A stretch of 46,873 nucleotides of DNA from assembly GCA_017549505.1 (NCBI GenBank), contig JAFYUS010000060.1:1-46873 (forward strand). Direction: 5' to 3'. A model generated the notes under the pieces. It saw only the letters and a program-made list of their open reading frames with translations. It searched no databases and was not told the DNA's origin. The stretch comes from Bacteroidales bacterium (lineage in GTDB: Bacteria > Bacteroidota > Bacteroidia > Bacteroidales > UBA932). The position numbers and the translations under genes are program-made. The first letter of the stretch is position 1. The number at the start of each line of letters is the position of its first letter. Shown here piece by piece: positions 1 through 12,358 of the stretch.

Positions 1-83
1 ATGTAGCAGAACTCGTATCCTGCATCGGTTTCTGCTAAGATTCCGGCCAGGCTATTCTTGTAGTATACTTCAGCTCTTTTCAT
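1..83 (-). CDS. HipA N-terminal domain protein (HipA or HipS), 3' part outside window
   Basis: Reading from the ATG at 81-83 on the minus strand gives 27 codons beginning MKRAEVYYKNSLAGILAETD, then the window ends. This opening strand pattern (K-A-x-V-Y-Y-x-N-x-x-A-G-x-L-x-E) is typical of the N-subdomain 1 of HipA-type serine/threonine kinases, the toxins of hipBA modules. In many Bacteroidota this subdomain is a separate short protein (HipS) followed by a kinase (HipT). The window is too short to decide between a full HipA and the split form. The start codon lies inside the preceding hipB-like gene (14-nt overlap), so the two are translationally coupled. Recognition is by pattern only, from 27 residues. 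Confidence 0.6.
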   Translation of the reverse strand, partial: MKRAEVYYKNSLAGILAETDAGYEFCY

Positions 84-288
84 TGAGTTCTTCCGATCTT
101 ACGGGTGCCAATTCGTAACCGAACATGGCAAGCACCTGGTTGACTTTATCCATTCTTAGGGTAGGTTTTCCCTGCTCAAGTTGACGCACGAAGTTAAGAC
201 CTACACCGCATTTGAGGGCGAGATCTTCCTGGGTCAGTCCGTATTCTTTACGGAGTGTTTTGAGTGTTGCAGACAGTAATGATTTCAT
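70..288 (-). CDS. HipB-like XRE-family antitoxin / repressor
   Basis: A 72-residue protein if started at the ATG at 286-288. An ATG 24 nt upstream would give 80 residues but falls within the operator and transcription start area. Residues about 8-62 form an XRE/Cro helix-turn-helix: LRKEYGLTQEDLALKCGVG, then FVRQLEQGKPTLRMDKVNQVL, split here by the recognition helix. The short tail is charged. This is the usual layout of HipB antitoxins, which repress their own operon and hold the HipA kinase inactive. The next gene starts inside this one, as in hipBA loci. Three palindromic boxes with about 40-bp spacing lie just upstream, supporting autoregulation. Family is confident; partner identity is inferred from the partial gene. 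Confidence 0.8.
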   Translation of the reverse strand: MKSLLSATLKTLRKEYGLTQEDLALKCGVGLNFVRQLEQGKPTLRMDKVNQVLAMFGYELAPVRSEELNEKS

Positions 289-293
289 AAAAC

Positions 294-392
294 TACATCT
301 TATCTGATGCAAATATAATAAATTTTGTAGAATTACATCATATCGGATATAAAAATGTGTTATGGCTGTTAAATTGCATTAGAACGGATGTA
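294..392 (-). promoter_or_regulatory. hipB promoter with three operator-like boxes
   Basis: A -7 element TATATTTG (consensus TAnnTTTG) reads on the minus strand at 310-317. Three related 18-bp boxes follow the pattern TGCATC-N6-GATGTA. On the minus strand the first is TGCATCAGATAAGATGTA at 294-311, overlapping the -7 box. The second is TATATCCGATATGATGTA at 334-351. The third, at 375-392, reads TGCATTAGAACGGATGTA on the plus strand. Their starts are 40 and 41 bp apart, close to four helical turns, so they would face the same side of the DNA. HipB proteins are known to bind several spaced palindromic operators upstream of hipBA; assignment here is inference from position and symmetry. Confidence 0.6.
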
Positions 393-571
393 ATTCTGCC
401 TATTTTGTCTATGAGGTTTCTATAATTGTGCTATTTTTCAACTTACGGGGCAATATTGTTTCCGTTATTTCATTGTTGACCATGTACAATAATTTATATG
501 TTTTGATTGAAAACTATGAAAAAATCAAAATTGGAGTGACTTTTTCATAGTTTCCGATAATATTTGAGTTT

Positions 572-599
572 GAATTCGCGATTTGCAAATCGCAAATTC
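572..599. repeat. 28-bp near-perfect palindrome
   Basis: Arms of 14 bp, GAATTCGCGATTTG and CAAATCGCAAATTC, meet with no spacer and differ at a single position (577 against 594). The inner 16 bp, GCGATTTGCAAATCGC, is exactly palindromic. Having no loop and no T-run, it looks more like a dimeric protein-binding site than a terminator. Its outer half-site (AATTCGC) recurs in the palindrome at 1253-1275. Confidence 0.7.
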
Positions 600-617
600 T
601 CATAATTTAATAGCGCC

Positions 618-696
618 TTTCACATAATCCGTGCTATTTTGAGGGATGATTTTCACATAATCCGCCCAATTTTTAGCCGAATTTTCACATTTTCCG
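618..696 (+). repeat. Three 14-bp direct repeats, period 32-33 bp
   Basis: TTTCACATAATCCG occurs exactly at 618-631 and 651-664, and with two changes (TTTCACATTTTCCG) at 683-696. The starts are 33 and 32 bp apart, about three helical turns. Intervening sequence is only loosely conserved. Too few and too short for a CRISPR array; the regular phasing suggests a multi-site binding region (regulator, replication or recombination protein). Confidence 0.65.
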
Positions 697-772
697 GATT
701 TTGATGGTGTGTGGAATTGTACAAATCTGGCAATAAAGTGCGTTTGTTGGTAATTTCCTGTGTTTTCGGTAT

Positions 773-790
773 TTACTTTCCGATACAGAA
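773..790 (-). other. mnmE 3'-end remnant / attachment-like site
   Basis: On the minus strand this reads TTCTGTATCGGAAAGTAA, which encodes F-C-I-G-K-stop, the universally conserved C-terminus of MnmE. No other part of mnmE is attached. Matching copies sit at the true mnmE end (9467-9484) and directly beyond it (9448-9465), all in the same orientation. Integrative elements such as SGI1 are known to insert at the 3' end of mnmE (trmE) using an 18-bp site at exactly these codons. I read this as the distal att site of a past or present integration, placing the island at 791-9447. Confidence 0.7.
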
Positions 791-1116
791 TGTAAAATCT
801 GCAAATATAAGAAATTGATAATCAGTACATTTACCTCCAATTACGGGGGCAGATACTATGCCGAGGGACGGAGGAGGGACGGAAAATATACAAAAATCTG
901 CAAAGACGTTTTTCCAGTTCTTTGTATATCTTTATAATCTGGCGAAAATTCGGAGTTATTTTTAACTCAAAATCTGGTTGTTAAAAAGTGTTGGCGCTAT
1001 TTTTGTTCCTTTGTGGCAAAAATCGAAATCTGTCTCTCAGGGGACACTTTTGTCCCTCCAGACTCTCATTCTGTCCCATCTGCATAACAAATATATATTA
1101 TAGCCGGAAGATCAAA

Positions 1117-1162
1117 GGTTTAGTTTAGGTTATAGATATATAATATGGCGATAAACTAAACC
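1117..1162. repeat. 11-bp perfect inverted repeat
   Basis: GGTTTAGTTTA (1117-1127) and TAAACTAAACC (1152-1162) are exact reverse complements separated by 24 bp of A/T-rich sequence. It could be an operator or a folded recombination site. There is no transposase or target duplication to support an insertion-sequence end. Confidence 0.55.
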
Positions 1163-1252
1163 GAACCAAGAAATTCTCCGAGCTATCACCTTATTTTCTT
1201 TTGGTAGGCAATTGTATCTCTATTTGTGGTTTTATGCACGTTTTTTGTTCTT

Positions 1253-1275
1253 AAATTCGCTAAAAATGCGAATTT
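1253..1275. promoter_or_regulatory. Candidate AbiEi operator and downstream promoter
   Basis: AAATTCGC (1253-1260) and GCGAATTT (1268-1275) are perfect 8-bp arms around a 7-bp spacer, 23 bp in total. AbiEi antitoxins are known to autorepress by binding inverted repeats of about this length before abiE. A possible promoter lies downstream: TTTG at 1319-1322, 20 bp, then TATTTTG at 1343-1349, one base short of the TAnnTTTG consensus, 38 bp before abiEi. Assignment is inference from position. Confidence 0.4.
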
Positions 1276-1386
1276 GAGGATAAATTTCTATCAAAAATAC
1301 CACGATTTGAAGAAAAAGTTTGGTTGAACAAAATAAAAAGAGTATTTTGCAACAAATTTAGGATGGTATTCATAAAATAAACGAAG

Positions 1387-2148
1387 ATGGCTACAAAAAT
1401 ACAGCAAATATTAGAAGCGGCGCCCAATGAATCGGTTTTATTTGGCTCGTGGCTTTCAAGCCAGGGCCTGGATGCTCGTGGTCAGTATGCTTATATGAAA
1501 AGTGGATGGCTTGACCGTATATCGAAAGGAGTTTATAAGATACACGGGACAGAACCAAGCCTGTTTGCTGCTGTATCGTCATACAACACTCAACTTAGTA
1601 AGAGTTGTGTTGTAGGTGCATATACAGCTTTGGAACTCCGCGGATACTCCCATTACCTGCCAATGGGGAAACCTATGGCTTATCTGTTTACAGACAAAAG
1701 CAACAAGTTACCTTCATGGTTACTAAAAGAGGAGTGGGATATGACCATAAAATATATGACTACCTCTTTTCTGGGTGATGAGCTGTTGGGGGTAGAAACC
1801 ATGACAATCAATCAACATGATTTGCTGGTGTCATCTCCAGAGCGTGCCATGTTGGAATGTTTGAACTTGCCGGATGCATCATCATCTTTGCTCGATATCT
1901 ATTATATCATGGAGGGCTTGACAACATTGCGTCCCAAGTTGGTTCAGACATTACTGGAGGCTTGCACGTCACAGAAAGTGAAACGACTGTTCTTATATAT
2001 GGCAGAAAAGGCTGGCCACGCCTGGTATAAGGCTTTGAAACAGGAGAATATTAATCTTGGCACATCTAGGTTTATGATTACTCCAACAGGAAAGTACATC
2101 AATAAGTATAATATGACAATATCTAAAGAACTGGCAGAATATGAATAA
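1387..2148 (+). CDS. abiEi: AbiEi-family antitoxin (type IV toxin-antitoxin), winged helix
   Basis: 253 residues, a normal length for AbiEi. Residues about 20-52 (WLSSQGLDARGQYAYMKSG then WLDRISKGVYKI) match the N-terminal winged-helix domain, which binds DNA. The middle and C-terminal parts (VVGAYTALELRGY near residue 77; SSPERAMLECL near 150) match the AbiEi C-terminal domain. In known systems AbiEi represses the operon and counteracts AbiEii without forming a stable complex. Its natural partner abiEii is not next door but 3.6 kb downstream, behind two DUF262 genes. Its last codons (KELAEYE) overlap the start of the first DUF262 gene by 8 nt, and the same 22 bp recur just before abiEii. First gene of the island operon; start ATG chosen because the family begins near this point. 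Confidence 0.8.
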   Translation: MATKIQQILEAAPNESVLFGSWLSSQGLDARGQYAYMKSGWLDRISKGVYKIHGTEPSLFAAVSSYNTQLSKSCVVGAYTALELRGYSHYLPMGKPMAYLFTDKSNKLPSWLLKEEWDMTIKYMTTSFLGDELLGVETMTINQHDLLVSSPERAMLECLNLPDASSSLLDIYYIMEGLTTLRPKLVQTLLEACTSQKVKRLFLYMAEKAGHAWYKALKQENINLGTSRFMITPTGKYINKYNMTISKELAEYE

Positions 2149-3652
2149 TTTGACGTTATCAATAACTACTATAGGTGATTTACTCCTTCGTCAAACCATA
2201 ACTATAACGGATAACGGGGGGCCAATCAAAGGCGTAAAATTGTGTGTGCCTATTTATCAACGTCCATACAAATGGACTGCTCGTAATGCCATTCAATTGC
2301 TTGATGATATTATTGATGCAAAGAATAGCAACAAAGAAAGATACAGAGTCGGCACGCTTATCCTTCATAAAGCAAAGGGTAAGAACCTATATGATATTGT
2401 TGATGGTCAGCAACGAACAATAACTTTCTCACTTCTTCTAACAGCATTAGGAGAAAAAGGTATAGAGTTCTTGCAACAGAAGATATATGATAATGAACAC
2501 AATAACCATAACATTGCAAACAATTATAATGCACTTTACCGAAGGGTTGGATTTAAATCTGAGGAAAGCGAGTCAGCTATAGAACATCAACGAGAAATGG
2601 AACGTCTTAAGGAGTACATTGAGAATAGGTGTGAGTTGATAGTTGTGATAACCTCCGATGTATCAGAAGCGTTCCAATTCTTTGATTCTCAAAATGCTCG
2701 AGGTAAGGCTCTTTACCCTCATGATTTACTGAAAGCGTACCATCTTCGTGAAATGAATGACATTAGTGATGAAGAAACAGAAAAGATAGTAAAGGATTGG
2801 GAACAGGTCTCACAAAGTGGTTTAGCCGATTTCTTTGGTAATTATCTATATCGTATTAAAGAGTGGGTAAGTGGCAACAAAGCCAATGTCTTAAATGAGC
2901 ATAATATCCAGATGTTCAAAGGTATTACACGTTCTGCAAGGACACCTTATGCCCAATTCTATAAGAGTGCCTATTGCTATGCTGACATGGTTAACTCTTC
3001 TGCTATGCCTTTTGTTTCGGGAACTCGAAATGTAAATGCGTTCCAGCTGAACACACCAATAATTGCAGGCAAACCATTCTTTGAATATACAAAACACTAC
3101 TATAATATACTCAAGGATATACAGAACAACAATAAGTATGAGGGGTTCTATATCAACGATAATATTATAGTTAAAACTCTGGATCGATATTTCAAAAAAG
3201 GTATAGGTAATGGCATAGCACGTCTGATGTTTGATACCTCTGTTCTACTTTATGTTGATAGATTTTGTCCAGAAACATATCCGACGAAAGAAGATATGGA
3301 ACTATTTGAACAATTTGTTATATATGCGTTTATATGGGCTTATTCATTGAGAGCGCAATACACTAACCTCGGCTGGCTTTCTGCACAGAATTATATTATG
3401 GGGTGGAGTGATAAAATTAATACATTCAATATGTATAAGCTGATTGCTAAACAAGATACGCCAGCCTCTTTACTAAGTGCTTTGGCAGATAAACTTAATC
3501 CTCTTTCTAATGAGGACATTAAAGATGGTTGGGCGCAGGAATGCTGTGAGTATAGTGGCAATGGTGAAATATTGAAGAATCTTAAGGATGAAAAAGATGG
3601 TGTGTATAAAAACTATCTGTGTTTCTTCCAATTAAATGGTTTCTATAAATAA
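2141..3652 (+). CDS. DUF262 (GmrS/ParB-like) protein without a recognisable nuclease domain
   Basis: 503 residues. The DUF262 hallmarks are present: VPIYQRPYKW (residues 36-45), DIVDGQQRT (85-93, containing the DGQQR nucleotide-binding motif) and DSQNARGKALYPHDLLKAYH (about 182-201). In GmrSD, BrxU and SspE enzymes this ParB-like domain binds and hydrolyses NTP and senses modified DNA. The usual C-terminal HNH (DUF1524, H-x-x-P then G-N-L) is not visible here; the last 200 residues are unassigned. The start ATG lies inside the abiEi stop region (8-nt overlap), and the next DUF262 gene begins 2 bp after its stop, so the two are likely made together. I infer a sensor or regulatory half of a two-protein type IV restriction system. 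Cytoplasmic. Confidence 0.75.
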   Translation: MNNLTLSITTIGDLLLRQTITITDNGGPIKGVKLCVPIYQRPYKWTARNAIQLLDDIIDAKNSNKERYRVGTLILHKAKGKNLYDIVDGQQRTITFSLLLTALGEKGIEFLQQKIYDNEHNNHNIANNYNALYRRVGFKSEESESAIEHQREMERLKEYIENRCELIVVITSDVSEAFQFFDSQNARGKALYPHDLLKAYHLREMNDISDEETEKIVKDWEQVSQSGLADFFGNYLYRIKEWVSGNKANVLNEHNIQMFKGITRSARTPYAQFYKSAYCYADMVNSSAMPFVSGTRNVNAFQLNTPIIAGKPFFEYTKHYYNILKDIQNNNKYEGFYINDNIIVKTLDRYFKKGIGNGIARLMFDTSVLLYVDRFCPETYPTKEDMELFEQFVIYAFIWAYSLRAQYTNLGWLSAQNYIMGWSDKINTFNMYKLIAKQDTPASLLSALADKLNPLSNEDIKDGWAQECCEYSGNGEILKNLKDEKDGVYKNYLCFFQLNGFYK

Positions 3653-3654
3653 TA

Positions 3655-5691
3655 ATGGCTATGAAAGATTTGAAAACTATTCTTGAAGAATGTTCGATTA
3701 ACGACATCTATTTCTCGAACAGAGGGACATCTATCTTATACAAAATACCTATCTATCAGCGTAATTATGCTTGGGAACGTGAAGAAATACGTGCTTTGAT
3801 AAATGATGTATATGATTCGATGACGAAGTCAGTTTACTATATCGGTACTCTTGTCACATACAAGCGTGACGAGAATATCTATGAAGTTATTGATGGTCAA
3901 CAGCGTCTGACAACAATTTACATTATCTTGAAGGCTTTGGGTATTGAAACGATTGGAAACCATCTTACTTATTCTGCAAGAAAGATTTCTGCTACGACAA
4001 TAGAGAAAATGCCTAAGTTTAGTGAAGAAAAAGATCAGGGTATTGTTGACGGATTCAATTATGCAAAGGAAGCACTCAAAGACATTGTTGGCGAAAAGAA
4101 GGCTGACATGGAAGCATTCCAGGATTTTTTCTTGAACAAGGTACATATCATTCACTATCGTGTGCCGAAAGATGTGGATTTAAATCACTATTTTGAGGTT
4201 ATGAACTCTCGTGGTGAGCAGTTAGAAAAGCATGAGATAATAAAAGCTAAACTCAGCAATCAATTAACAGGTGATGACGACGCGATGCAGAAGTTTAGTC
4301 GTATATGGGAGGCTTGTAGCGACATGGGTTTCTATATTCAACAGAAACTTCCTGATATAAATGTCTTTGGTAAAACTATGGAAGATTTTGTTATAGAGTC
4401 TTTCGACGAGTTCCCTAGTTCTAATGTAGGCTCATCTTCGTCATTAGGTATGAAAACTATTTCAGAACTTTTATATTCACCTATAAGAATGATAGATAAA
4501 TATGGAGAATTTGACAATAACGATCATTTTCAACCGATAATAGACTTTCCGAATTTTCTATTGATTGTCTTGAAAATTACAAGGTCGTGGAATGAAGATG
4601 ATTTCGATCCTTTGAGTTTTACGCTTGACGATAAAGAACTCATTAAGGAGTTCGAGAAGGTAAATCTTACCCCAGAGTTCGTTAAGGACTTTGCATACAA
4701 TCTCCTCTTGGCTAAATATTTTCTTGATAATTATGTGATTCATCATGCAAATGGAGAAGACAGAGTCTTAGAGAATCCCTGGAAGTTGCAATATTATTAT
4801 AAGAATGGTAATAAGACTGCTTATCTAAAGGATTTGTATGAGGATAGAAAAGCACAACAAAACGAAGTAATCCAATTACTTTCCATGTTTGAAGTCGCTT
4901 TCACACCCAAACAAAGAAAGAACTATCTGTTCTATTGTTTATACCATTTGTTTGAGGATTGTGACCTTGATAACTATGTGGAGTTCTTAAGAAAACTGGC
5001 AGATAAATATTTCTTCGATGTGTATCTTGATGCGAGCAAACTCAATGATATGAATCAGCCCAAACCTAATAGTTTTGATGATACTATTCTTAATGGAAGT
5101 GAACTAAACGTTGAATTAGAAGATGTTGAGCGAGATTTTGATAGTATTTATTCTATTGGTTCATGCAATATACCTCTTTACGTATTTAACTATACGGATT
5201 ATAAAATTTGGAAGAAATATGCAGAGGAACTTCGTGGAAACAAAGCAAAGAAGGACTCTCGTAATAGAATAGACTTTTTCAAAGCATTAGGTTGTAGTGA
5301 CTTTGAGTTAGATGTTTTCAATAACTTCTATTTCTCACGAACTAGAAAAAGTTTGGAACATTATTATCCACAAGCCAAGGCTGGTGATGATATGCCAATT
5401 AGTACGCAAGATATAAATTGCTTTGGCAATTTTGCCATGATAGGGTCTGATGCAAATAGTTCTGGTTCGAATTGGAATCCAATTGATAAAAAGAATCGCT
5501 ATCTTGATACAAAGTCAAACCCAGTGAGTGTAGCTTCTTTAAAGTTCCGAATTATGCTACAGATATGTCAGGATAATTACGATGCAGGAATTAAGAACAA
5601 AAATATTAAGCGTCTATTTGGTTTAGAATGGAATGTCGAAGATATGGTTCAACATCAAGAGAAAATGCTCGAGATTATTATGAACTATTAA
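3655..5691 (+). CDS. DUF262-DUF1524 (GmrSD-like) type IV restriction enzyme
   Basis: 678 residues; an alternative ATG lies two codons in. The N-terminal DUF262 domain has IPIYQRNYAW (31-40), EVIDGQQRLTT (77-87) and EVMNSRGEQLEKHEIIKAKL (about 182-201). The C-terminal end carries an HNH-type DUF1524 signature: H569-Y-Y-P, then INCFGNFAMIG (about 587-597) and ANSSGSNWNP, giving the histidine and asparagines expected of the nuclease. GmrSD-type enzymes cut DNA with modified (for example glucosylated) cytosines, using NTP. Paired with the shorter DUF262 gene upstream, so sensor and effector roles may be divided. It is followed by 53 bp that includes an abiEi remnant, then abiEii. No membrane segment or signal peptide. 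Confidence 0.8.
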   Translation: MAMKDLKTILEECSINDIYFSNRGTSILYKIPIYQRNYAWEREEIRALINDVYDSMTKSVYYIGTLVTYKRDENIYEVIDGQQRLTTIYIILKALGIETIGNHLTYSARKISATTIEKMPKFSEEKDQGIVDGFNYAKEALKDIVGEKKADMEAFQDFFLNKVHIIHYRVPKDVDLNHYFEVMNSRGEQLEKHEIIKAKLSNQLTGDDDAMQKFSRIWEACSDMGFYIQQKLPDINVFGKTMEDFVIESFDEFPSSNVGSSSSLGMKTISELLYSPIRMIDKYGEFDNNDHFQPIIDFPNFLLIVLKITRSWNEDDFDPLSFTLDDKELIKEFEKVNLTPEFVKDFAYNLLLAKYFLDNYVIHHANGEDRVLENPWKLQYYYKNGNKTAYLKDLYEDRKAQQNEVIQLLSMFEVAFTPKQRKNYLFYCLYHLFEDCDLDNYVEFLRKLADKYFFDVYLDASKLNDMNQPKPNSFDDTILNGSELNVELEDVERDFDSIYSIGSCNIPLYVFNYTDYKIWKKYAEELRGNKAKKDSRNRIDFFKALGCSDFELDVFNNFYFSRTRKSLEHYYPQAKAGDDMPISTQDINCFGNFAMIGSDANSSGSNWNPIDKKNRYLDTKSNPVSVASLKFRIMLQICQDNYDAGIKNKNIKRLFGLEWNVEDMVQHQEKMLEIIMNY

Positions 5692-5728
5692 TCTCAGTAA
5701 CAAGAAGTGTATAAAAGGTTTATTATTC

Positions 5729-5750
5729 AAAGAACTTGCAGAATATGAAT
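5729..5750 (+). repeat. Duplicate of abiEi 3' end in front of abiEii
   Basis: These 22 bp match 2125-2146 at 21 of 22 positions. In the upstream copy they encode KELAEYE and hold the start ATGAAT of the first DUF262 gene. Here they preserve KELAEYE in one frame and supply the ATGAAT start of abiEii. The copy is therefore a fossil of the original abiEi/abiEii junction and the mark of the DUF262 pair being placed between the two. Confidence 0.75.
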
Positions 5751-6671
5751 GGTGTAAGATCAAGTGTTTACGCTCAGAAAGTAGAACTGCTACTACGTCT
5801 TATTCCGATAGTGATGGAAGAGGATGTGTTTGCCATACATGGTGGTACTGCCATCAATCTTTTCTTGAAGGACTTGCCACGTTATTCTGTAGATATTGAT
5901 TTGACCTATATCCCATTGGCTGACCGTCAGACAAGTTTGGATGACATCAATATGCATCTGAATGTCATCGCGGAAAAGGCAAAGAAAGCTTTCAAAGGGA
6001 TGCATATCGTTCCAAACTTCAGTACCTGCAAACTGTTGTGCGAATATCGAGGTAGGCAGGTGAAGATAGAGGTTAACCAGACCAAGAGAGGTATTATAGG
6101 TGGTGATGTTCAAACAATACCATTGAGCGAGAAAGCACAGGAAGAGTTTTCTCTCTTTTGTGAGGCAAATGTTGTTCCGACGACACAATTATATGGTGGT
6201 AAGATTGCAGCAGCACTCTCTCGTCAGCATCCTCGTGATTTATTTGATGTGAAATATATGGATATACCATTGAGCGAATGCCGTGAGGGACTTATCTTCT
6301 GTTTGCTTGGCAGCGACAGACCCATCCATGAGTCATTTACTCCACGACTGATTGACCAGCGAGAAGCAATGGAAAACCAGTTCTCTGGTATGACTGATAT
6401 TCCTTTTTCATACGAAGAGTTTGAAGCGACTCGTGCCAAACTCATTAATGATGTAAAGTCGTTGATGACAGAAGCGGATAAGAAGTTCCTTATCAGTTTC
6501 GAATCTGGTCAGCCAGAATGGGATGGCTATGAATTTGAGTACTTCAAGGATTATCCATCTGTACAATGGAAACTTCTTAATCTGAAGAAACTCGGCAAGC
6601 AGAATCCGCAGAAGCTGCAGGAAGAAGCGGAGAAACTAAGAAATCTCTTTAATTTCAATCTCAATAATTAA
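5745..6671 (+). CDS. abiEii: AbiEii-family nucleotidyltransferase toxin
   Basis: 308 residues from the ATG at 5745; a TTG nine bases earlier is open but the ATG sits in the conserved junction copy. The nucleotidyltransferase core is clear: HGGTAINLFL (residues 32-41), SVDIDLTY (48-55, catalytic Asp50 and Asp52), VKIEVNQ (106-112) and KIAAALSRQHPRDLFDVK (153-170, motif IV Lys153 and Asp165). AbiEii and its relatives (MenT) use NTP to inhibit growth, in MenT by adding nucleotides to tRNA 3' ends. Together with the AbiEi at 1387 it would form an abortive-infection system. The 53-bp gap before it contains the abiEi remnant; the next gene follows after 13 bp. All key residues are present, so it looks intact. 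Confidence 0.85.
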   Translation: MNGVRSSVYAQKVELLLRLIPIVMEEDVFAIHGGTAINLFLKDLPRYSVDIDLTYIPLADRQTSLDDINMHLNVIAEKAKKAFKGMHIVPNFSTCKLLCEYRGRQVKIEVNQTKRGIIGGDVQTIPLSEKAQEEFSLFCEANVVPTTQLYGGKIAAALSRQHPRDLFDVKYMDIPLSECREGLIFCLLGSDRPIHESFTPRLIDQREAMENQFSGMTDIPFSYEEFEATRAKLINDVKSLMTEADKKFLISFESGQPEWDGYEFEYFKDYPSVQWKLLNLKKLGKQNPQKLQEEAEKLRNLFNFNLNN

Positions 6672-6684
6672 CAGCTCACTACTT

Positions 6685-7689
6685 ATGTCATACCAAGATT
6701 TTCAACAGAGGGTTTATTCGTACTTGATTAAGTATAAGAAGGAAAACCTTAAGATTATTGATAAAGGTACTTCTGCACATGGAGTTGAACACGATTGTTT
6801 ATTACCAAAGCCATATAGCGAAGCCCAAATACCTATTATGCTTTATGATGGTATTAAAGAAACAGTGAAAGACATTCAAGCAAGCAAGTTTGCATATAAG
6901 CCTCACCTTGCAGCTTCTGTACATGTGGCAAGTTCTCAAACTGCATGTATCAACCTATTTGTGCCAATCTTGGAAAGTGAGTACGCAGACCAAATACTTA
7001 TAGGGGCAGGAGTCGTACCAAAAGAATTTGACCATATTGACAGAAACCAGCTTCGCAAAGGATATTGCTTTGAGTATTGGGAGTCAACACTTGAAGGAAC
7101 AAAAGGGCTTCTTGGAGATCATAGTCCTAATGCTGGTACAGACTCAGATGTTGCCATTGCATATCGCAACAAGGACAACAGACTGTGCCTTTGGTTGATA
7201 GAGCACAAGTTAACGGAACGAGAATTTACGACTTGTGGAGGCTACCGTTCAAAGGGTATTTCTCACTCAGAGAAGGAGTACTGCACTTCTTGCGGTATTG
7301 AAGAAATTTTGGAAAACCACGATAAGTGTTATTACCACAAACATTGTGCTTACTTTTATTGGAATATTATGGATGCCCAATCTTCATTCTTCTGTGGTAA
7401 ATATGAAGGCAATGGCTGTCCGTTTAGATGCGGTATGAATCAACTATGGAGAAATCAAATGCTGGCTTTGGAACTTGAGAATAGAGGTGTATTTGAAGAT
7501 GTATATTTCTCGGTTGTCTCTCATCCAGATAATTCTTTTCTTGACAAGACTATGAATGAATATCGGGCACTAACAAATAACTCTCCAAAGTTCTATGACT
7601 TCAAATCAAATACACTTGTGGATGTTGCAATTGATTATTTGCCTGATTGGTCAAATTGGTACAAGAAGGTGTATTTAGGATTTGATTAA
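6685..7689 (+). CDS. PD-(D/E)XK nuclease-like protein with cysteine cluster
   Basis: 334 residues. A PD-(D/E)XK signature is visible as GTDSDVAIAYRN (151-162, Asp153/Asp155) and LWLIEHKLTE (169-178, Glu173-x-Lys175). Directly after it come eight cysteines in 66 residues: C184, C200, C203, C215, C221, C237, C245 and C249, with nearby histidines. This suggests one or two Zn sites or an Fe-S cluster, as in Cas4 and AddB-type nucleases. The pattern recalls the PGN_0703-like putative restriction endonucleases of Bacteroidota; that assignment is from memory. The gene starts 13 bp after abiEii and its stop shares one base with the next start (TAATG), so it is in the same operon. A defence nuclease is likely; substrate unknown. 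Confidence 0.6.
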   Translation: MSYQDFQQRVYSYLIKYKKENLKIIDKGTSAHGVEHDCLLPKPYSEAQIPIMLYDGIKETVKDIQASKFAYKPHLAASVHVASSQTACINLFVPILESEYADQILIGAGVVPKEFDHIDRNQLRKGYCFEYWESTLEGTKGLLGDHSPNAGTDSDVAIAYRNKDNRLCLWLIEHKLTEREFTTCGGYRSKGISHSEKEYCTSCGIEEILENHDKCYYHKHCAYFYWNIMDAQSSFFCGKYEGNGCPFRCGMNQLWRNQMLALELENRGVFEDVYFSVVSHPDNSFLDKTMNEYRALTNNSPKFYDFKSNTLVDVAIDYLPDWSNWYKKVYLGFD

Positions 7690-8389
7690 TGTATCACCAT
7701 GATTATGACAATATACAAATGATAGAACAACTCCGACCATTAATGACTCTTGATGCTAACATGAATACATCAGACATCGAAGAGCGTTTTGAACGAATAG
7801 CAAAGATGCTATTTGAATGTTTTGCTATTCAGAAGGGAAATACCATATACCACTTTAAAGAGATTGATTTTACTTCTACAATAAGAATCATCGTGATATT
7901 ATCACCCATCCACGTATATCTAAACCATTGTGTTGGTATGTAAACGACTTTGGAGGGATTGATTTAAATTTTTCCTGTATTATCAAACGTGAGTATAGGC
8001 CAAATAGTAAGGGAAAGATTGTCGAAAAGTATGTGTTGGATGATAGCGCATACTTTGGTGGCATCCTCATTCGTCAACTAATAAGTGAAGATGGTTGTGA
8101 AGTTCTAAATGGACCATGGGCTTGTGCAGAATTGTTTAGATGCTATGATGCCACAGGTGTTGACCGTGGATTTCCTGTTCTTGTGGAACATGATAATGGT
8201 ATGGTGGGCTATATCCGTAAACCTCGTGTTAATCTACTTAGGTCAAATCAATCTGTTGAAGATAAAGTTAATAATATTCTTTACCAATATCATGACAATG
8301 TACAATCTTCCAAAGAAACTTTATACCAAGATTTCATAAACTTCAAAGATAAACCATATGGATATGAACAACAAATTGCTTCACGATAA
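7689..8389 (+). pseudogene. Frameshifted gene, possible alkylpurine-DNA glycosylase (MPG-fold) relative
   Basis: An ATG at 7689 opens a frame that reads to a stop at 7943, but the sensible protein changes frame at the T-run 7868-7871. With one extra T the product would run KEIDF-YFYNKNHRDIITHP and end at 8389, about 233 residues. Downstream segments are CWYVNDFGGIDLNFS, YFGGILIRQLI and NGPWACAELF. Their order (E-I-D-x-Y, D-x-x-x-H, Y-V-x-x-x-G-I-x-L-x, G-I-L-I-R, N-G-P) resembles the alkyladenine glycosylase (AAG/MPG) fold, whose catalytic Glu would be the E of KEIDF. This is a weak by-eye match. The frameshift may be a real inactivation, a sequencing or assembly error in a homopolymer, or programmed slippage. 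Its upstream overlap (TAATG) and 32-nt downstream overlap show tight coupling. Confidence 0.5.
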
Positions 8390-9248
8390 AAATACAAACG
8401 TAGTATTTCTATCTCCTTGTTTGAATACTAAAAAATATGGTAATCCTAAGTTCTATAAGGAGTTGATGACCATACTAAAGGAAATGGGTATAGAAACAAG
8501 AGAACTTAAGTGCACTCGCGATTATTGGGCTCGTGACTATATGCCTATTCAATTGGGCGAAAATGATTTTTTGAAGTATCATTATTATCCAGATTATCTT
8601 ATAAATAGGGATGATATTGATTCGATAACGGATGTTTCAAAAGTGATATCCGGTATGGGTATTAACTGTCGTTCTACCAATTTAATCATAGATGGTGGCA
8701 ATATGGTGCCATGCGGTCCTTATATTGTGATGACAGATAAGGTGTTTTCTGAAAACAGGAAAAAGAAAGATGATTGGGAATTCAAAGCCTTGCTAGATTC
8801 CGAGCTTGGTCATCCTGTTATCATTATTCCCTGGACTTCACATGAAGATGATGTGTATGGACATTCAGATGGTTTCATCAAATGGTGTGGTGATAATCGA
8901 ATACTGATGGGTAATCATGGTGATTGCTATCCTGAAGAAGCAGCATCCATCCGTCGGATTCTTGAAAGTTATGGCTTTGAAGTTACAGAAATTCGTTTCA
9001 AGGACAAAGTTGATACTCCTTGTTATGAGTTCAACTGGGCATATATCAACTTTCTTCAGGTAGGTAAAAACATCATAATGCCTAAATTCAACATTGAAGA
9101 AGATGTAATAGCTCAACAATACATTCAAGAAGCATTCCCCGATTGCTGTATCCGTCAAATAGAAATGGCAGAAATTGCAAAAGAAGGTGGCGCTTTACAT
9201 TGTTTAAGCTGGAATGTACATCTTCCAAAATCAGATGTAAAAACATAA
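8358..9248 (+). CDS. Agmatine deiminase / peptidyl-arginine deiminase family enzyme
   Basis: 296 residues; start at 8358 gives a 32-nt overlap with the preceding gene, and an ATG two codons in is an alternative. Family motifs are in order: RDYWARDYMP (54-63), IDGGNMV (111-117), YGHSDGF (167-173, His169 and Asp171) and GGALHCLSWN (277-286, nucleophile Cys282). This is the guanidino-group-modifying fold used by agmatine deiminase and Porphyromonas-type PAD, which convert guanidino groups to ureido groups with release of ammonia. Length is short of typical agmatine deiminase (about 350-370). There is no signal peptide, so it acts in the cytoplasm. Finding it as the last gene of a defence operon is unusual; an effector that modifies protein arginine or small guanidines is possible but unproven. 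Confidence 0.7.
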   Translation: MDMNNKLLHDKNTNVVFLSPCLNTKKYGNPKFYKELMTILKEMGIETRELKCTRDYWARDYMPIQLGENDFLKYHYYPDYLINRDDIDSITDVSKVISGMGINCRSTNLIIDGGNMVPCGPYIVMTDKVFSENRKKKDDWEFKALLDSELGHPVIIIPWTSHEDDVYGHSDGFIKWCGDNRILMGNHGDCYPEEAASIRRILESYGFEVTEIRFKDKVDTPCYEFNWAYINFLQVGKNIIMPKFNIEEDVIAQQYIQEAFPDCCIRQIEMAEIAKEGGALHCLSWNVHLPKSDVKT

Positions 9249-9447
9249 ATCACCACCTATGAGATCTATTTGTCCCTCGGCTATTTTCTACTATCTCGGG
9301 GGACAGATGGGGGACAAAACGGGCGAAAAACTGCAAATATCGAAGTTAAAAATCAAAAATCTGCAAAAATGGATGAATTTTTAAATGCTTGAAATGATGT
9401 GATTTACGAGCTGTATTTGCAGATAGTATGCTTTTCTTTGCAAAAAA
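9249..9447. other. Non-coding right end of island with GGGAC repeats
   Basis: GTCCCTCG (9272-9279) and CGGGGGAC (9297-9304) can pair into an 8-bp stem without a following T-run. The block GGGACAGATGGGGGACAAAA followed by CTGCAAA (about 9299-9340) resembles the left-end block at 865-905 (GGGACGGAGGAGGGACGG, then CTGCAAA), so similar sequence lies inside both island ends. No gene is visible. Confidence 0.5.
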
Positions 9448-9484
9448 TCACTTTCCCACGCAGAATCTACTTCCCGATGCAGAA
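9448..9484 (-). other. Tandem mnmE 3'-end copies (attachment-like site)
   Basis: Two 18-bp units lie 19 bp apart on the minus strand. The first, TTCTGCATCGGGAAGTAG (9467-9484), is the genuine end of mnmE (FCIGK-stop). The second, TTCTGCGTGGGAAAGTGA (9448-9465), encodes FCVGK-stop and lies just outside the gene. A third copy is at 773-790. A tandem duplicate right at the gene end is expected when elements integrate repeatedly at, or excise imprecisely from, the same attB. Confidence 0.75.
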
Positions 9485-10966
9485 ATTAGCAAAGATATTC
9501 CCCAGCACCTCGTCTGTGGAGATTTCTCCGACGATGCTGCCGAGGTGGTAGATTGCTTCGCGGATGTCCTGGGCGGCGAGGTCGGTCGGGAGGCCGGCGG
9601 CGAGGCCTTCGCGGACGCGGAGGAGGGAAGTGCGGGCATCGCTTAGGGCCTGGGCATGACGCTGGTTTGTAACCAAGGTGGTGTCGCTGTCTCCTAGCAG
9701 ATCACGCTGTGAAAAGGCCAGATATGAGCGCAGATCTGATAGACCTGCCCCTGTTTTGGCAGATATTGGGATGATTTTTACCTCTCCTTTGTCATTATAA
9801 TTGTTGTTTGATTCAACTAACTTACTATCAATATAGGAAACAATATAGTTTTCGATAGTAACATTTTTGTTAACCTCTGAGATGTCAGTTTTATTGAGCA
9901 AAAAGACCAGTTTCTGGCATGTAAAGTCGACCTTGTCAACAATCGAGCGGATAGTCTCGCATGTGCTTTCGAAATCTCTTGTAAGGTCGATCATTCCGAG
10001 GACAATCGATGCTTCGCCGATCTTCTTGAAGGTCCTCTGGATGCCGATCTGTTCGACCACTTCCGTGGTCTCACGGAGACCGGCAGTGTCGATGAAACGG
10101 AAGAGGATTCCGTCTATGTTCAGTGTCTCCTCGACTGTGTCACGTGTGGTGCCATGGACGTCGGAGACGATTGCTCGGTCTTCGCCGAGCAATGCATTAA
10201 GCAATGTACTTTTTCCAGTATTGGTGGCTCCTGCAATCGCGACAGGAACTCCATTCTTTATCGCGTTTCCAAGGCGGAAAGAATCAATGAGTCTGCCCAC
10301 ATGGGCGATGATCTGTTCGAGCAGGGAGTCGAGACGGGTCCGGTCAGCAAATTCGACTTCTTCCTCGCTGAAGTCAAGCTCCAGTTCCATCAGAGAAACC
10401 AGTTCGAGAAGTTCGCCTCTCATGCCGCGGAGCTCTGAGGAGAATCCTCCTTTCATCTGCTTGAATGCTATCCTGTGGGCAGCTGCATTCTGGGATGCTA
10501 TGACATCAGCTACTGCCTCTGCCTGGGCAAGGTCCATCTTGCCGTTAAGAAAAGCCCTTTGGGTAAACTCTCCAGGTTCTGCAGCTCTTGCTCCTGCTGC
10601 ATATAGAAGTGACATGATTTCCGACACGATATATGATGATGCATGACACGAAATCTCAACGGAATTTTCCCCTGTATAAGAGTGTGGTGCACGGAAGACA
10701 CTGACAAGAACTTCGTCAATAATATGCTTGAAGCTTTTGTTTGATAACGCATCGCAATCATTTGAGTTGCAATTATCTATAATATTATATATAACTCCAA
10801 ACTTTAAGGTATATCCATCGGCTTCGCTTATGCTTCCCTTACGGCATGTAACAACCTTGTCGGCAATGGTCAATGCATCAGGACCGCTGACTCTGATTAC
10901 GGATATCGCTCCGGTTCCGGGAATAGTTGCCGGTGCACAGATGGTATCTTCGTTTCTAATGTACAT
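9467..10966 (-). CDS. mnmE: tRNA modification GTPase MnmE (TrmE)
   Basis: 499 residues, a little longer than the usual 450-460 because of insertions in the N-terminal (near residue 65-75) and G domains (near 370). MnmE with MnmG makes the 5-carboxymethylaminomethyl modification of wobble uridine in tRNA. The N-terminal tetrahydrofolate-binding domain begins IRNEDTICAPATIPGTGAIS. The inserted G domain shows G1 GATNTGKS, G2 GTTRDT, G3 DTAG and G4 LNKTD. The C-terminus FCIGK keeps the catalytic Cys. Its own promoter overlaps the carA promoter. The 3' end serves as an integration site for the neighbouring island, which leaves the protein intact. Confidence 0.97.
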   Translation of the reverse strand: MYIRNEDTICAPATIPGTGAISVIRVSGPDALTIADKVVTCRKGSISEADGYTLKFGVIYNIIDNCNSNDCDALSNKSFKHIIDEVLVSVFRAPHSYTGENSVEISCHASSYIVSEIMSLLYAAGARAAEPGEFTQRAFLNGKMDLAQAEAVADVIASQNAAAHRIAFKQMKGGFSSELRGMRGELLELVSLMELELDFSEEEVEFADRTRLDSLLEQIIAHVGRLIDSFRLGNAIKNGVPVAIAGATNTGKSTLLNALLGEDRAIVSDVHGTTRDTVEETLNIDGILFRFIDTAGLRETTEVVEQIGIQRTFKKIGEASIVLGMIDLTRDFESTCETIRSIVDKVDFTCQKLVFLLNKTDISEVNKNVTIENYIVSYIDSKLVESNNNYNDKGEVKIIPISAKTGAGLSDLRSYLAFSQRDLLGDSDTTLVTNQRHAQALSDARTSLLRVREGLAAGLPTDLAAQDIREAIYHLGSIVGEISTDEVLGNIFANFCIGK

Positions 10967-10982
10967 CTCAGTAATATTTTAT

Positions 10983-11018
10983 ATTGCAAAATTACCATAA
11001 TTTTCCTATCTTCGCAAA
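10983..11018. promoter_or_regulatory. Overlapping divergent promoters for mnmE and carAB
   Basis: For mnmE (minus strand): TTTG at 11015-11018, 20-bp spacer, TAATTTTG at 10987-10994, 21 bp before the start codon. For carAB (plus strand): TTG at 10984-10986, 20-bp spacer, TATCTTCG at 11007-11014 (7 of 8 consensus). The elements interlock, so the two promoters would compete for RNA polymerase. The carA transcript would have a leader of about 230 nt. Confidence 0.65.
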
Positions 11019-11061
11019 GATTTACTGAACCCTAAAGGGATATTATCTAAAAGGAAGAATT

Positions 11062-11172
11062 ATGTGTAAACGATCAAATATCGGAACATGCATGAAAGTG
11101 AACGCATTACAAGATAATGCACACTCTTCTTTTTCCTTTTTTACTGATATTGTCGGCCATTTTCTCTTCTAG
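11062..11172 (+). CDS. carAB leader peptide (36 aa), candidate
   Basis: A 36-codon frame starts ATG at 11062 behind a purine-rich AAGGAAGAA and ends TAG at 11170-11172. The peptide starts MCKRSNIGTCMKVNALQDN and its second half is rich in Phe (SSFSFFTDIVGHFLF), because it crosses a 19-base pyrimidine run at 11124-11142. Its stop codon falls in the loop and first base of the right arm of the terminator at 11155-11190. E. coli pyrL, the pyrBI leader, has the same logic: a translated U-rich pause tract with Phe codons, then an attenuator. No homology to PyrL is claimed; the parallel is architectural. Confidence 0.5.
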   Translation: MCKRSNIGTCMKVNALQDNAHSSFSFFTDIVGHFLF

Positions 11173-11190
11173 AGAAGTGGTCGTTTTTTT
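11155..11190 (+). terminator. Intrinsic terminator acting as carAB attenuator
   Basis: Left arm GGCCATTTTCTC (11155-11166) pairs with GAGAAGTGGTC (11172-11182), giving 11 pairs with one bulged U and some G-U, loop TTCTA, followed by a run of seven T (11184-11190). It lies about 170 nt into the predicted carA transcript and 59 bp before carA, inside or next to the leader reading frame. A ribosome reaching the leader stop would cover the stem and let transcription proceed. Confidence 0.65.
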
Positions 11191-11248
11191 ATACCACCTG
11201 AGGAAGTTCGGTGAAATGGAACTGAAATAAATTTAAACAAACTATAAA

Positions 11249-12358
11249 ATGAAACTTAAAGCAACACTTCGTCTGGAGAACGGCATGGAATTCCATGGAT
11301 GGTCGTTCGGCTGCGCGCAGTCTGTCAGTGGTGAAGTGGTCTTCAACACCTCGATGGTAGGATACCCTGAGCAGTTGACTGACCCTGCATACAACGGACA
11401 GATCCTGTGTCTCACTTATCCTCTTATCGGTAACTACGGTGTGCCTTCTGAAGCGCTCGTAGCTGAATCCCTTTCTGCAAAACTTGAGTCTGAAAAGATC
11501 CAGCCTAAAGGTCTGATCGTTTTCGATTACTGTGAGGAGTACAGCAACTGGGAAGCAGAGAAAGGACTTGAGCAGTGGATGAACGAACAGGGACTTACAG
11601 GTATCTACGGAATCGATACCAGAGAGCTTACCAAGATTCTCCGAGACAAGGGTTCTATGAAGGGCGAAATCATTCCTGAGGGAGCAGCGAAGCCAGCTGA
11701 GGCTGAAAAGCCATCACCTGCAGCTGTTACTTGCAAGGACGTAATAGTTTATGCGTCAACGGCTGCTCAGGATGTGGAGAATATCAATGGAAGCAAGGCT
11801 GCAACTGCAGAAGGAAAGAAAGTCGTTGTCGTTGACCTTGGAGTAAAGCACAGCATCATCAGAGGTCTCCTCTCACGTGGTGCAGAAGTCATCAGAGTTC
11901 CGTATGATTACGACTTTACTCAGATGGAATATGACGGAGTATATGTCTCAAGCGGTCCTGGATGCACATGCAATTGCGAGGGAACGATAGAAATACTCAA
12001 GAAGGTCCTCGGTGGCAACAAACCGGTATTCGGAGTCGGCATGGGATACCACCTCATCGCCAAGGCTGCAGGATGCGAGCTCGAAAGACTTGCACATCCT
12101 CACAGAGGTGCCAACCAGCCTGTAAGAAAGGAAGGCACAAACCGCACATATATTTCTTCACAGAACACATATCGCGCTGTAAAGGCAAAGTCAATCCCGT
12201 CTGACTGGGATGTCTACTTCACCAACCTTAATGACGGTGCTGTAGACGGCATCCGCCACAAGACCAAGCCATTCGCAGGTCTCAACTTTGCTCCTGAAGT
12301 ATGTGTAGGCCGTGACGAAAACGTAACTCCACTTGATGAATTCATCAGCAAACTCTAA
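11249..12358 (+). CDS. carA: Carbamoyl-phosphate synthase small subunit, glutaminase site degenerate
   Basis: 369 residues, normal length. The N-terminal domain (LENGMEFHGWSFG, residues 9-21; NTSMVGYPEQLTDPAY, 33-48) and the C-terminal class I amidotransferase fold are both present, joined by an Ala/Glu/Lys/Pro-rich linker (about 144-160). CarA normally hydrolyses glutamine and channels ammonia to CarB. Here the nucleophile elbow reads FGVGMGYH: the catalytic Cys is Gly264 (codon GGC at 12038-12040). The catalytic His in the usual HPE is Ala348 in NFAPE, and the SQNH motif is SQNT; Glu350 remains. Glutamine hydrolysis is therefore not expected. Vertebrate CPS1 shows a comparable loss of Cys and uses free ammonia. 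Followed directly by carB; preceded by an attenuator. Confidence 0.9.
   Translation: MKLKATLRLENGMEFHGWSFGCAQSVSGEVVFNTSMVGYPEQLTDPAYNGQILCLTYPLIGNYGVPSEALVAESLSAKLESEKIQPKGLIVFDYCEEYSNWEAEKGLEQWMNEQGLTGIYGIDTRELTKILRDKGSMKGEIIPEGAAKPAEAEKPSPAAVTCKDVIVYASTAAQDVENINGSKAATAEGKKVVVVDLGVKHSIIRGLLSRGAEVIRVPYDYDFTQMEYDGVYVSSGPGCTCNCEGTIEILKKVLGGNKPVFGVGMGYHLIAKAAGCELERLAHPHRGANQPVRKEGTNRTYISSQNTYRAVKAKSIPSDWDVYFTNLNDGAVDGIRHKTKPFAGLNFAPEVCVGRDENVTPLDEFISKL

What the first reader, a model, noticed from the sequence alone, without database searches (positions are those of the whole stretch)
1387..9248. Composite defence operon: AbiE split by a DUF262 pair plus nuclease, possible glycosylase and deiminase
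Seven same-strand genes with overlaps or gaps of at most 53 bp lie in AT-rich DNA between two attachment-like sites. Seen directly: AbiEi and AbiEii motifs, two DGQQR DUF262 proteins, a D...EHK nuclease signature and a Cys-type deiminase. Known: AbiE is an abortive-infection toxin-antitoxin, and GmrSD cuts modified phage DNA. Inference: this is one multi-layer unit in which AbiEi may regulate the whole operon and AbiEii may penalise its loss. I do not know of a described system with this gene set.
Basis: partly seen in the sequence, partly recalled or inferred. Interest (0 to 1): 0.85.

Follow-up and report, generated by a model that had tools for sequence, protein, structure and literature searches.

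The report
Split AbiE operon carrying DNA-defence cargo
A small island in a bacterial genome, probably of the Bacteroidales, carries a toxin-antitoxin operon that was split by the insertion of a two-gene system resembling a known phage-DNA restriction system, followed by swappable genes, among them an apparently undescribed pairing of a DNA-repair-type glycosylase relative with a deiminase.

Summary
The genes are real: AbiEi, two DUF262 proteins, AbiEii, a PD-(D/E)XK-type nuclease, a glycosylase-like gene (frame-broken here) and an agmatine-deiminase-like protein, in AT-rich DNA between imperfect repeats of the mnmE 3' end. They are separate modules. (1) The DUF262 pair is a widespread two-gene unit laid out like the published TgvAB restriction system: adjacent in 78 of 83 loci, the other five ending at a contig edge. 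(2) It was inserted exactly at the AbiEi/AbiEii junction: in 20 of 20 fetched AbiE relatives the two genes are neighbours, and here the AbiEi 3' end is repeated before AbiEii. AbiEi plus the pair occurs in six loci, window included. (3) The gene after AbiEii differs in all five loci that show it; the exact set was seen only here. (4) The last two genes form an independent module, fused in three relatives: a homologue of AAG-type DNA glycosylases (profile E 1.8e-7; catalytic Glu and Tyr positions invariant in 25 of 25) and a deiminase with its catalytic Cys. A two-sequence seed profile hits 13 of 40 deiminase loci, always beside the deiminase, and 0 of 170 control loci. My searches listed no description of this module; its defence role is inferred.

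The parts
771..790 (+). left attachment-like site (imperfect copy of the mnmE 3' end)
   Evidence: 20 bp, 3 mismatches to 9465-9484; mean 0.01 in shuffles; same pattern in L098 8734-8753 and L102 6057-6076
1244..1284 (+). 17-bp-stem palindrome upstream of AbiEi; possible operator or terminator
   Evidence: inside the stretch shared with L098 and L102, not with L033; function not tested
1387..2148 (+). AbiEi antitoxin/regulator (AbiEi_3_N + AbiEi_3)
   Evidence: PF11459 2.3e-47, PF17194 2.8e-21
2120..2146 (+). AbiEi 3' end, first copy of the junction repeat
   Evidence: 27 bp, 89% identical to 5724-5750
2141..3652 (+). DUF262 protein a (GmrSD_N + DUF7834), TgvA-like layout
   Evidence: PF03235 1.5e-29, PF25202 1.5e-54; QR, DGQQR, FxxxN in the translation
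3655..5691 (+). DUF262 protein b (GmrSD_N + weak GmrSD_C/DUF1524), TgvB-like layout
   Evidence: PF03235 2.1e-35; PF07510 2.2e-4, 21.5 bits, below its cut-off of 23
5724..5750 (+). second copy of the AbiEi 3' end, in front of AbiEii
5736..6671 (+). AbiEii nucleotidyltransferase toxin (ATG start possible at 5745)
   Evidence: PF08843 2.2e-23; PADLOC AbiEii 6.7e-107
6685..7689 (+). cargo: PD-(D/E)XK-type restriction nuclease (REase-ARP)
   Evidence: PF22558 2.2e-17, PF20796 1.8e-9; a relative lies inside a type I R-M operon in L320
7689..8389 (+). AAG-type DNA glycosylase homologue ('gene 6'), in two ORFs (7689-7943, 7928-8389) because the frame breaks near 7867
   Evidence: hhalign prob 93.8, E 1.8e-7 against AAG with the intact family; intact copies in L032, L033, L098
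8358..9248 (+). agmatine/peptidyl-arginine-deiminase-like enzyme
   Evidence: PF04371 3.4e-23; homologues with solved structures, best 6b10 at 1.7e-25; Asp112, His169, Asp171, Cys282 invariant in 29 of 29 (that these are catalytic is recalled)
9465..9484 (+). right attachment-like site, the 3' end of mnmE

Best explanation
This is an 8.7-kb genomic island without an integrase of its own, at the 3' end of mnmE, that carries a modular defence operon. The core is an AbiE type IV toxin-antitoxin operon into whose gene junction a two-gene DUF262 system with the layout of TgvAB was inserted, so that DUF262a took the start position that AbiEii holds in unsplit operons. Behind AbiEii is a slot whose genes differ between strains (here a nuclease), and behind that a separate glycosylase-deiminase module. 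Shown here: gene content, junction repeat, recurrence of the core, change of cargo, independence of the last module. Inferred from known families: AbiEi represses its own promoter and thereby sets expression of the genes behind it; AbiEii keeps the island from being lost; the DUF262 pair senses hypermodified phage bases and cuts that DNA; the nuclease cuts invading DNA; the deiminase and the AAG-type glycosylase act together on DNA, the deiminase altering a base or adduct that the glycosylase then removes. The last step is the least certain, and in this genome the glycosylase frame is broken.
For: Junction: AbiEi 3' end repeated before AbiEii in the window (27 bp, 89%); in L102 a 77-bp stretch before AbiEii matches the window's AbiEi end at 90% and lines up with L102's own AbiEi end. 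20 of 20 fetched AbiE relatives (of 32 places found outside the two split loci) have AbiEi next to AbiEii, 18 of them overlapping by 4-23 bp. Core recurs: AbiEi before the pair in 6 of 83 rows; AbiEii complete in 4 (window, L033, L098, L102), truncated in L104, cut by the contig end in L099. Cargo: DUF3800 x2 in L033, KAP NTPase in L098, unknowns in L102 and L104. DNA homology to L098 and L033 stops at 6634-6644 and resumes at 7724-7741. DUF262 pair adjacent in 78 of 83 rows; TgvA and TgvB have the same two layouts and both are needed (PMC11411939, passages). Glycosylase homology. Module linkage: a seed profile from two fusion proteins outside the sampled genomes hits 13 of 40 deiminase loci, all within 1.2 kb and on the same strand, and 0 of 170 control loci, 1.9 Mb. 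Defence-type neighbours: hsdR/hsdM (L238), GmrSD_N and HNH (L068), AAA-DUF4435 (L035).
Against: No promoter, transcript or phage assay. GmrSD_C in DUF262b is below Pfam's cut-off. 16 of 40 deiminase loci lack the glycosylase partner, and 14 of 41 partner places have no deiminase within 2.5 kb; of the 18 partner places that were not in the search profile only 4, window included, have one. The glycosylase is frame-broken in the window. Some deiminase relatives adjoin Sel1-repeat proteins or have signal-peptide-like starts, which does not fit a DNA role well. In a DUF262a tree of 28 chosen rows the AbiE-positive loci are not one clade: 4 changes, at least 2 forced by well-supported branches, although they share the junction.
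Confidence: 0.72

Rival explanations
1. One reading: all seven genes are one dedicated multi-layer system that is selected and inherited together under AbiEi control.
For: Same strand, overlaps and short gaps; the core plus the glycosylase-deiminase end recurs in L033 and L098.
Against: Exact set seen only in the window among 83 rows; cargo differs in all five AbiE-positive loci that read past this point; 23 of 40 deiminase loci have the partner but no core gene in the stretch fetched; core and module differ in divergence from L098 (96% and 83% DNA identity).
Confidence: 0.1
2. The island is a passive pile of defence genes gathered at an integration hotspot and partly decaying; the AbiE split is an accident with no functional coupling.
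For: Glycosylase frame broken; AbiEii truncated in L104 and AbiEi lost in L100 except for about its last 117 bases; tandem att-like repeats beside the mnmE end in L033.
Against: The junction keeps the 8-bp overlap that couples AbiEi to the next start codon; AbiEi, DUF262a, DUF262b and AbiEii are open and 87 to 99.7% identical in protein to the copies in L098, L033 and L102.
Confidence: 0.17
3. The deiminase module is not a DNA-defence system: the deiminase acts on agmatine, arginine or protein arginine, and the glycosylase-fold partner only binds or regulates.
For: The closest known enzymes are agmatine and peptidyl-arginine deiminases; Sel1-repeat-like partners in L036, L037, L039, L057, L062 by eye and in L034 by Pfam.
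Against: Partner keeps the AAG catalytic Glu and Tyr positions in 25 of 25; relatives lie in an R-M operon and in viral contigs; other loci pair the deiminase with HNH-like proteins.
Confidence: 0.3

Closest known systems
AbiE type IV toxin-antitoxin
   Same: AbiEi_3 antitoxin and AbiEii nucleotidyltransferase families, in that order on one strand
   Different: AbiEi and AbiEii are separated by a 3.5-kb two-gene insertion; in 20 of 20 fetched relatives they are neighbours
TgvAB, two-gene GmrSD-like type IV restriction (PMC11411939, passages seen)
   Same: first gene DUF262 only, second DUF262 + DUF1524 (the latter weak here); QR, DGQQR and FxxxN motifs; more distant DUF262 pairs lie beside hsdM genes in L091 and L095
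   Different: embedded in AbiE instead of type I R-M; no direct sequence comparison with TgvAB was made; substrate unknown
GrwAB (PMC12137116, passages seen)
   Same: two DUF262 genes, both needed, against modified DNA
   Different: gene order reversed: GrwA has the DUF1524 domain and comes first
AAG (alkyladenine/3-methyladenine) DNA glycosylase, PF02245
   Same: homologous over about 150 columns, with ExExY, LIR, GP and YRF blocks in the same order
   Different: no PF02245 hit by hmmscan; fused or coupled to a deiminase; base excision not shown
Agmatine / Porphyromonas-type peptidyl-arginine deiminase, PF04371
   Same: Cys, His, Asp blocks invariant
   Different: short (about 280 aa), often coupled to a DNA-glycosylase homologue
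Brig1 anti-phage DNA glycosylase (PMC11078745, passages seen)
   Same: DNA glycosylase in defence loci
   Different: Brig1 belongs to the uracil-DNA-glycosylase superfamily, not AAG, and acts alone

Membership tests
AbiE type IV TA | AbiEi-family antitoxin | tested here: met
   PF11459 2.3e-47
AbiE type IV TA | AbiEii nucleotidyltransferase toxin | tested here: met
   PF08843 2.2e-23, PADLOC 6.7e-107
AbiE type IV TA | the two genes form a bicistron | tested here: not met
   separated by the DUF262 pair; neighbours in 20 of 20 fetched relatives
AbiE type IV TA | antitoxin neutralises toxin without binding it; represses promoter | not testable with these tools
   needs bench work
TgvAB-like two-gene GmrSD | adjacent DUF262-only gene and DUF262 + DUF1524 gene in that order | tested here: inconclusive
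   GmrSD_N in both above cut-off; GmrSD_C in b 21.5 bits against a cut-off of 23
TgvAB-like two-gene GmrSD | QR, DGQQR, FxxxN motifs in both | tested here: met
   seen in the translations; motif list from PMC11411939
TgvAB-like two-gene GmrSD | sequence similarity to TgvA and TgvB themselves | not tested
   their sequences were not fetched
TgvAB-like two-gene GmrSD | restricts phages with modified cytosines, both genes needed | not testable with these tools
   plaque assay
AAG DNA glycosylase | profile homology to PF02245 proteins | tested here: met
   prob 93.8, E 1.8e-7; 30 column shuffles at most prob 2.1 (E 0.022), reversed 0.2. By hmmscan no PF02245 hit
AAG DNA glycosylase | catalytic Glu and stacking Tyr (E125, Y127 in human AAG, recalled) | tested here: met
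   E52 and Y54 invariant in 25 of 25; ExEAY aligned with ExEFY
AAG DNA glycosylase | excises a base | not testable with these tools
   needs assay
Agmatine/arginine deiminase | Cys, His, Asp catalytic residues | tested here: met
   invariant in 29 of 29
Integrative island at mnmE | direct repeats of the mnmE 3' end at both edges | tested here: met
   a relative sits beside mnmE in L102
Integrative island at mnmE | own integrase | tested here: not met
   no PF00589 match in the window, six elsewhere in the genome

The most novel reading that the evidence does not exclude
The last two genes are an undescribed anti-phage module in which an agmatine-deiminase-type enzyme converts an amidine- or guanidine-like group in phage DNA (a hypermodified base such as a 7-deazaguanine derivative, or a normal purine) and its AAG-type glycosylase partner excises the product, leaving abasic sites: a deaminate-and-excise restriction. 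In some loci an HNH-like protein may take the glycosylase's place.
Probability: 0.25. Interest if true: 0.87.

Novelty: new variant of a known kind. Interest (0 to 1): 0.6.

Why it matters
The split AbiE operon with its junction repeat is a clear snapshot of how a toxin-antitoxin operon takes a restriction system under its own start signals, and suggests a way by which cargo becomes addicted to its island. The glycosylase-deiminase module would, if it acts on DNA, be a new chemistry of phage restriction. Its glycosylase part was found in 38 of 393 genomes of the window's order, 28 of which also have a strong deiminase match, and it is small enough to test in a laboratory strain.

Tried and rejected
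No plasmid record matches window 1-12000 by megablast. Viral contigs with DUF262a or the window deiminase alone gave no relative; the deiminase alignment gave 13 loci, 4 of them with the glycosylase partner. No RNA family at gathering threshold in 1-11500. The two broken pieces of gene 6 have no hit in Pfam, PADLOC or NCBIfam; intact fusions show only the deiminase and chance-level hits in Pfam; the PDB sequence search gave no believable hit (a repeat-rich chain and a tag region); PHROGs gave one weak family of unknown function for one relative. The idea that the protein before the deiminase in L049 and L070 is a UDG-superfamily glycosylase came from a recalled motif; Pfam gave nothing and hhalign to UDG gave prob 0.1 (two-sequence profile), so it is dropped. 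The narrower gene-6 alignment A4 scored weakly against a four-sequence AAG profile (prob 27.9); the wider A2 scored 83.8, and 93.8 against 33 AAG sequences. A Fisher test for co-occurrence (p 6e-23) is not used as evidence: the search profile was built from 23 of the 27 linked places, so its size is inflated; one search replaces it. 'ARP' in the nuclease family name could not be resolved. A strict Bacteroides-type promoter motif (recalled consensus) was not found before AbiEi.
Full report
What is there. The window is contig 60 of a 2.1-Mb, 78%-complete genome. From 1387 to 9248 there is a same-strand string of ORFs with overlaps up to 32 bp and gaps up to 53 bp. Pfam gives AbiEi_3, GmrSD_N + DUF7834, GmrSD_N + a sub-threshold GmrSD_C, AbiEii, REase-ARP/PDDEXK_13, two ORFs without a hit, and PAD_porph; PADLOC agrees on AbiEi and AbiEii. 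G+C drops to 35-40%.

Where it sits. Bases 771-790 and 9465-9484 are a 20-bp direct repeat with 3 mismatches, mean 0.01 in shuffles. The right copy is the end of mnmE; on its strand it codes for FCIGK-stop. In Xylanibacter ruminicola D31d (L102) the left-edge sequence and the 9223-9465 stretch flank a relative of this island beside mnmE. L033 shows tandem att-like copies there, as if the site had been used more than once. From recall, this gene end is also the site of the SGI1 island family. No Phage_integrase match lies in the window; six exist elsewhere in the genome.

The DUF262 pair. DUF262b follows DUF262a in 78 of 83; the other five stop at a contig edge. AbiEi is labelled in only 6 rows. 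The layout equals that of TgvA/TgvB, a V. cholerae pair in which both genes are needed and both DGQQR motifs and the His-Me nuclease matter (PMC11411939, passages); a second such pair, GrwAB, has the reverse order and is also active against 7-deazaguanine phages (PMC12137116, passages).

AbiE was split by it. AbiEi precedes the pair in the window, L033, L098, L099, L102 and L104. AbiEii follows in four; L104 keeps only its start (DNA homology to 5812) and L099 is cut by its contig end. Of 34 AbiEii places in 393 genomes of the window's order, two are split loci; I fetched the best 20 of the other 32. In 20 of 20 AbiEi directly precedes AbiEii, 18 overlapping by 4-23 bp, one gap of 17 bp and one of 109 bp where the frame has a stop. 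In the split loci the AbiEi 3' end also occurs just before AbiEii: 27 bp at 89% in the window; in L102 77 bp that match the window's AbiEi end at 90% and line up with L102's own. DUF262a uses the ATG position that AbiEii has in unsplit operons. So the pair was inserted at the junction. L100 has no AbiEi ORF but keeps about its last 117 bases, and nests among AbiE-positive rows in a DUF262a tree of 28 chosen rows. That tree asks for 4 changes of the AbiE label, at least 2 on well-supported branches, and does not show one clade; the shared junction argues for one origin with losses, or recombination.

Cargo changes. DNA identity to L098 is 96% over 1115-6634, absent over the nuclease, then 83% over 7724-9469; L033 behaves likewise. 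In place of the nuclease L033 has two DUF3800 proteins, L098 a 905-aa KAP NTPase, L102 and L104 proteins without a believable Pfam hit. The nuclease is rare: 3 of 237 genomes including the window's, one of them inside a type I R-M operon (L320). The exact gene set was seen only in the window.

The last module. In L033, L098 and L032 the two last genes are one 509-514-aa protein. In the window the first half is broken by a frame change near 7867, at the catalytic motif, and a length change near 8374 leaves the deiminase as its own ORF. This may be real decay or an assembly error. The deiminase family with E up to 8.1e-21 has 48 places in 393 genomes (weaker matches, down to 1e-5, include what look like ordinary agmatine deiminases and were left out); I fetched 40. 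An iterated profile finds the partner fused in 1, within 400 bp upstream in 14 and downstream in 3, 520-1548 bp away on the same strand in 6, and absent in 16. As an unbiased check, a profile from only L098 and L032, neither of the sampled genomes, hits 13 of the 40 loci (E up to 0.01), all 13 within 1.2 kb of the deiminase and on its strand, and 0 of 170 control loci, 1.9 Mb. A genome-wide search with the 25-row profile found 41 places in 38 of 393 genomes, 27 within 2.5 kb of a strong deiminase place; but 23 of those 27 were in the profile. Of the 18 that were not, 4 (window included) are near a deiminase and 14 are not, some of these at contig ends. So the glycosylase family also lives alone. 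Upstream genes of the pair differ from locus to locus, so this is an independent module.

What the partner is. A profile of 25 partner proteins against 33 AAG proteins from genomes of the window's order and class gives probability 93.8, E 1.8e-7 over 150 columns; reversed AAG 0.2, 30 column shuffles at most 2.1, deiminase and DUF262 profiles 0.1. The ExEAY motif of AAG aligns with ExEFY here; E52 and Y54 are invariant in 25 of 25. From recall these are human AAG E125 and Y127; a following Asp-x3-His or Tyr, present in most rows, would match D132 and H136. The deiminase is homologous to solved agmatine and peptidyl-arginine deiminases, with Asp112, His169, Asp171 and Cys282 invariant in 29 of 29.

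Why defence. Module or deiminase relatives lie between hsdR and hsdM (L238), behind a GmrSD_N and an HNH protein (L068), behind AAA-DUF4435 (L035), behind a protein with a sub-threshold ADP-ribosylglycohydrolase match (L032), and in 13 viral contigs, 4 with the partner. Mutually similar HNH-like proteins adjoin the deiminase in L046, L048, L060 and L067, and one on a Flammeovirga plasmid (L319), where no glycosylase is seen; Pfam HNH scores are below cut-off in L046, L048, L067 and L319 and absent in L060. Against a DNA role, several loci add Sel1-repeat proteins. A chemical reading is possible: the deiminase family attacks guanidine or amidine carbons, and AAG enzymes remove deaminated purines (both recalled), so the two could deaminate and excise. 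This is inference only.

Print. Searches for agmatine/arginine deiminase with anti-phage, phage-defence or defence-island terms, 3-methyladenine glycosylase with anti-phage or deiminase, and AbiE/AbiEii with DUF262 or cargo terms listed no paper whose title or opening abstract describes the split AbiE operon or the module. I saw listings only (15 of 27, 12 of 285, 12 of 16, 0, 4 of 4 and 10 of 10 papers), apart from the passages named above.

Verdict. Composite island: new variant of a known kind. Glycosylase-deiminase module: the most novel part, defence role unproven.

Noticed in passing
window 70-312 minus: Y4mF/HipB-family antitoxin HTH just outside the left att-like site; its partner would lie beyond the window start.
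   Followed up: no
L242 5845-6858, L246 6001-6482, L247 5965-6906: Deiminase-like proteins in viral contigs behind a 318-334-aa protein and a 1400-1680-aa protein: a phage-borne branch without the glycosylase.
   Followed up: no
L238 5832-6713: A free-standing deiminase of this family sits between hsdR and hsdM of a type I R-M operon.
   Followed up: partly
L086 7266-13407: A DUF262 pair with a DUF6088 (AbiEi-like) gene upstream and ORF6N-like and Fic genes downstream: possibly another TA-embedded pair.
   Followed up: partly
L033 10180-10270: Tandem near-copies of the mnmE 3'-end repeat, as if several islands had used the site.
   Followed up: no
L049 609-1241, L070 8241-8993: A shared 210-250-aa protein of unknown family sits before the deiminase where the glycosylase would be.
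   Followed up: partly
window 1244-1284: 17-bp-stem palindrome about 100 bp before AbiEi; candidate AbiEi operator.
   Followed up: no
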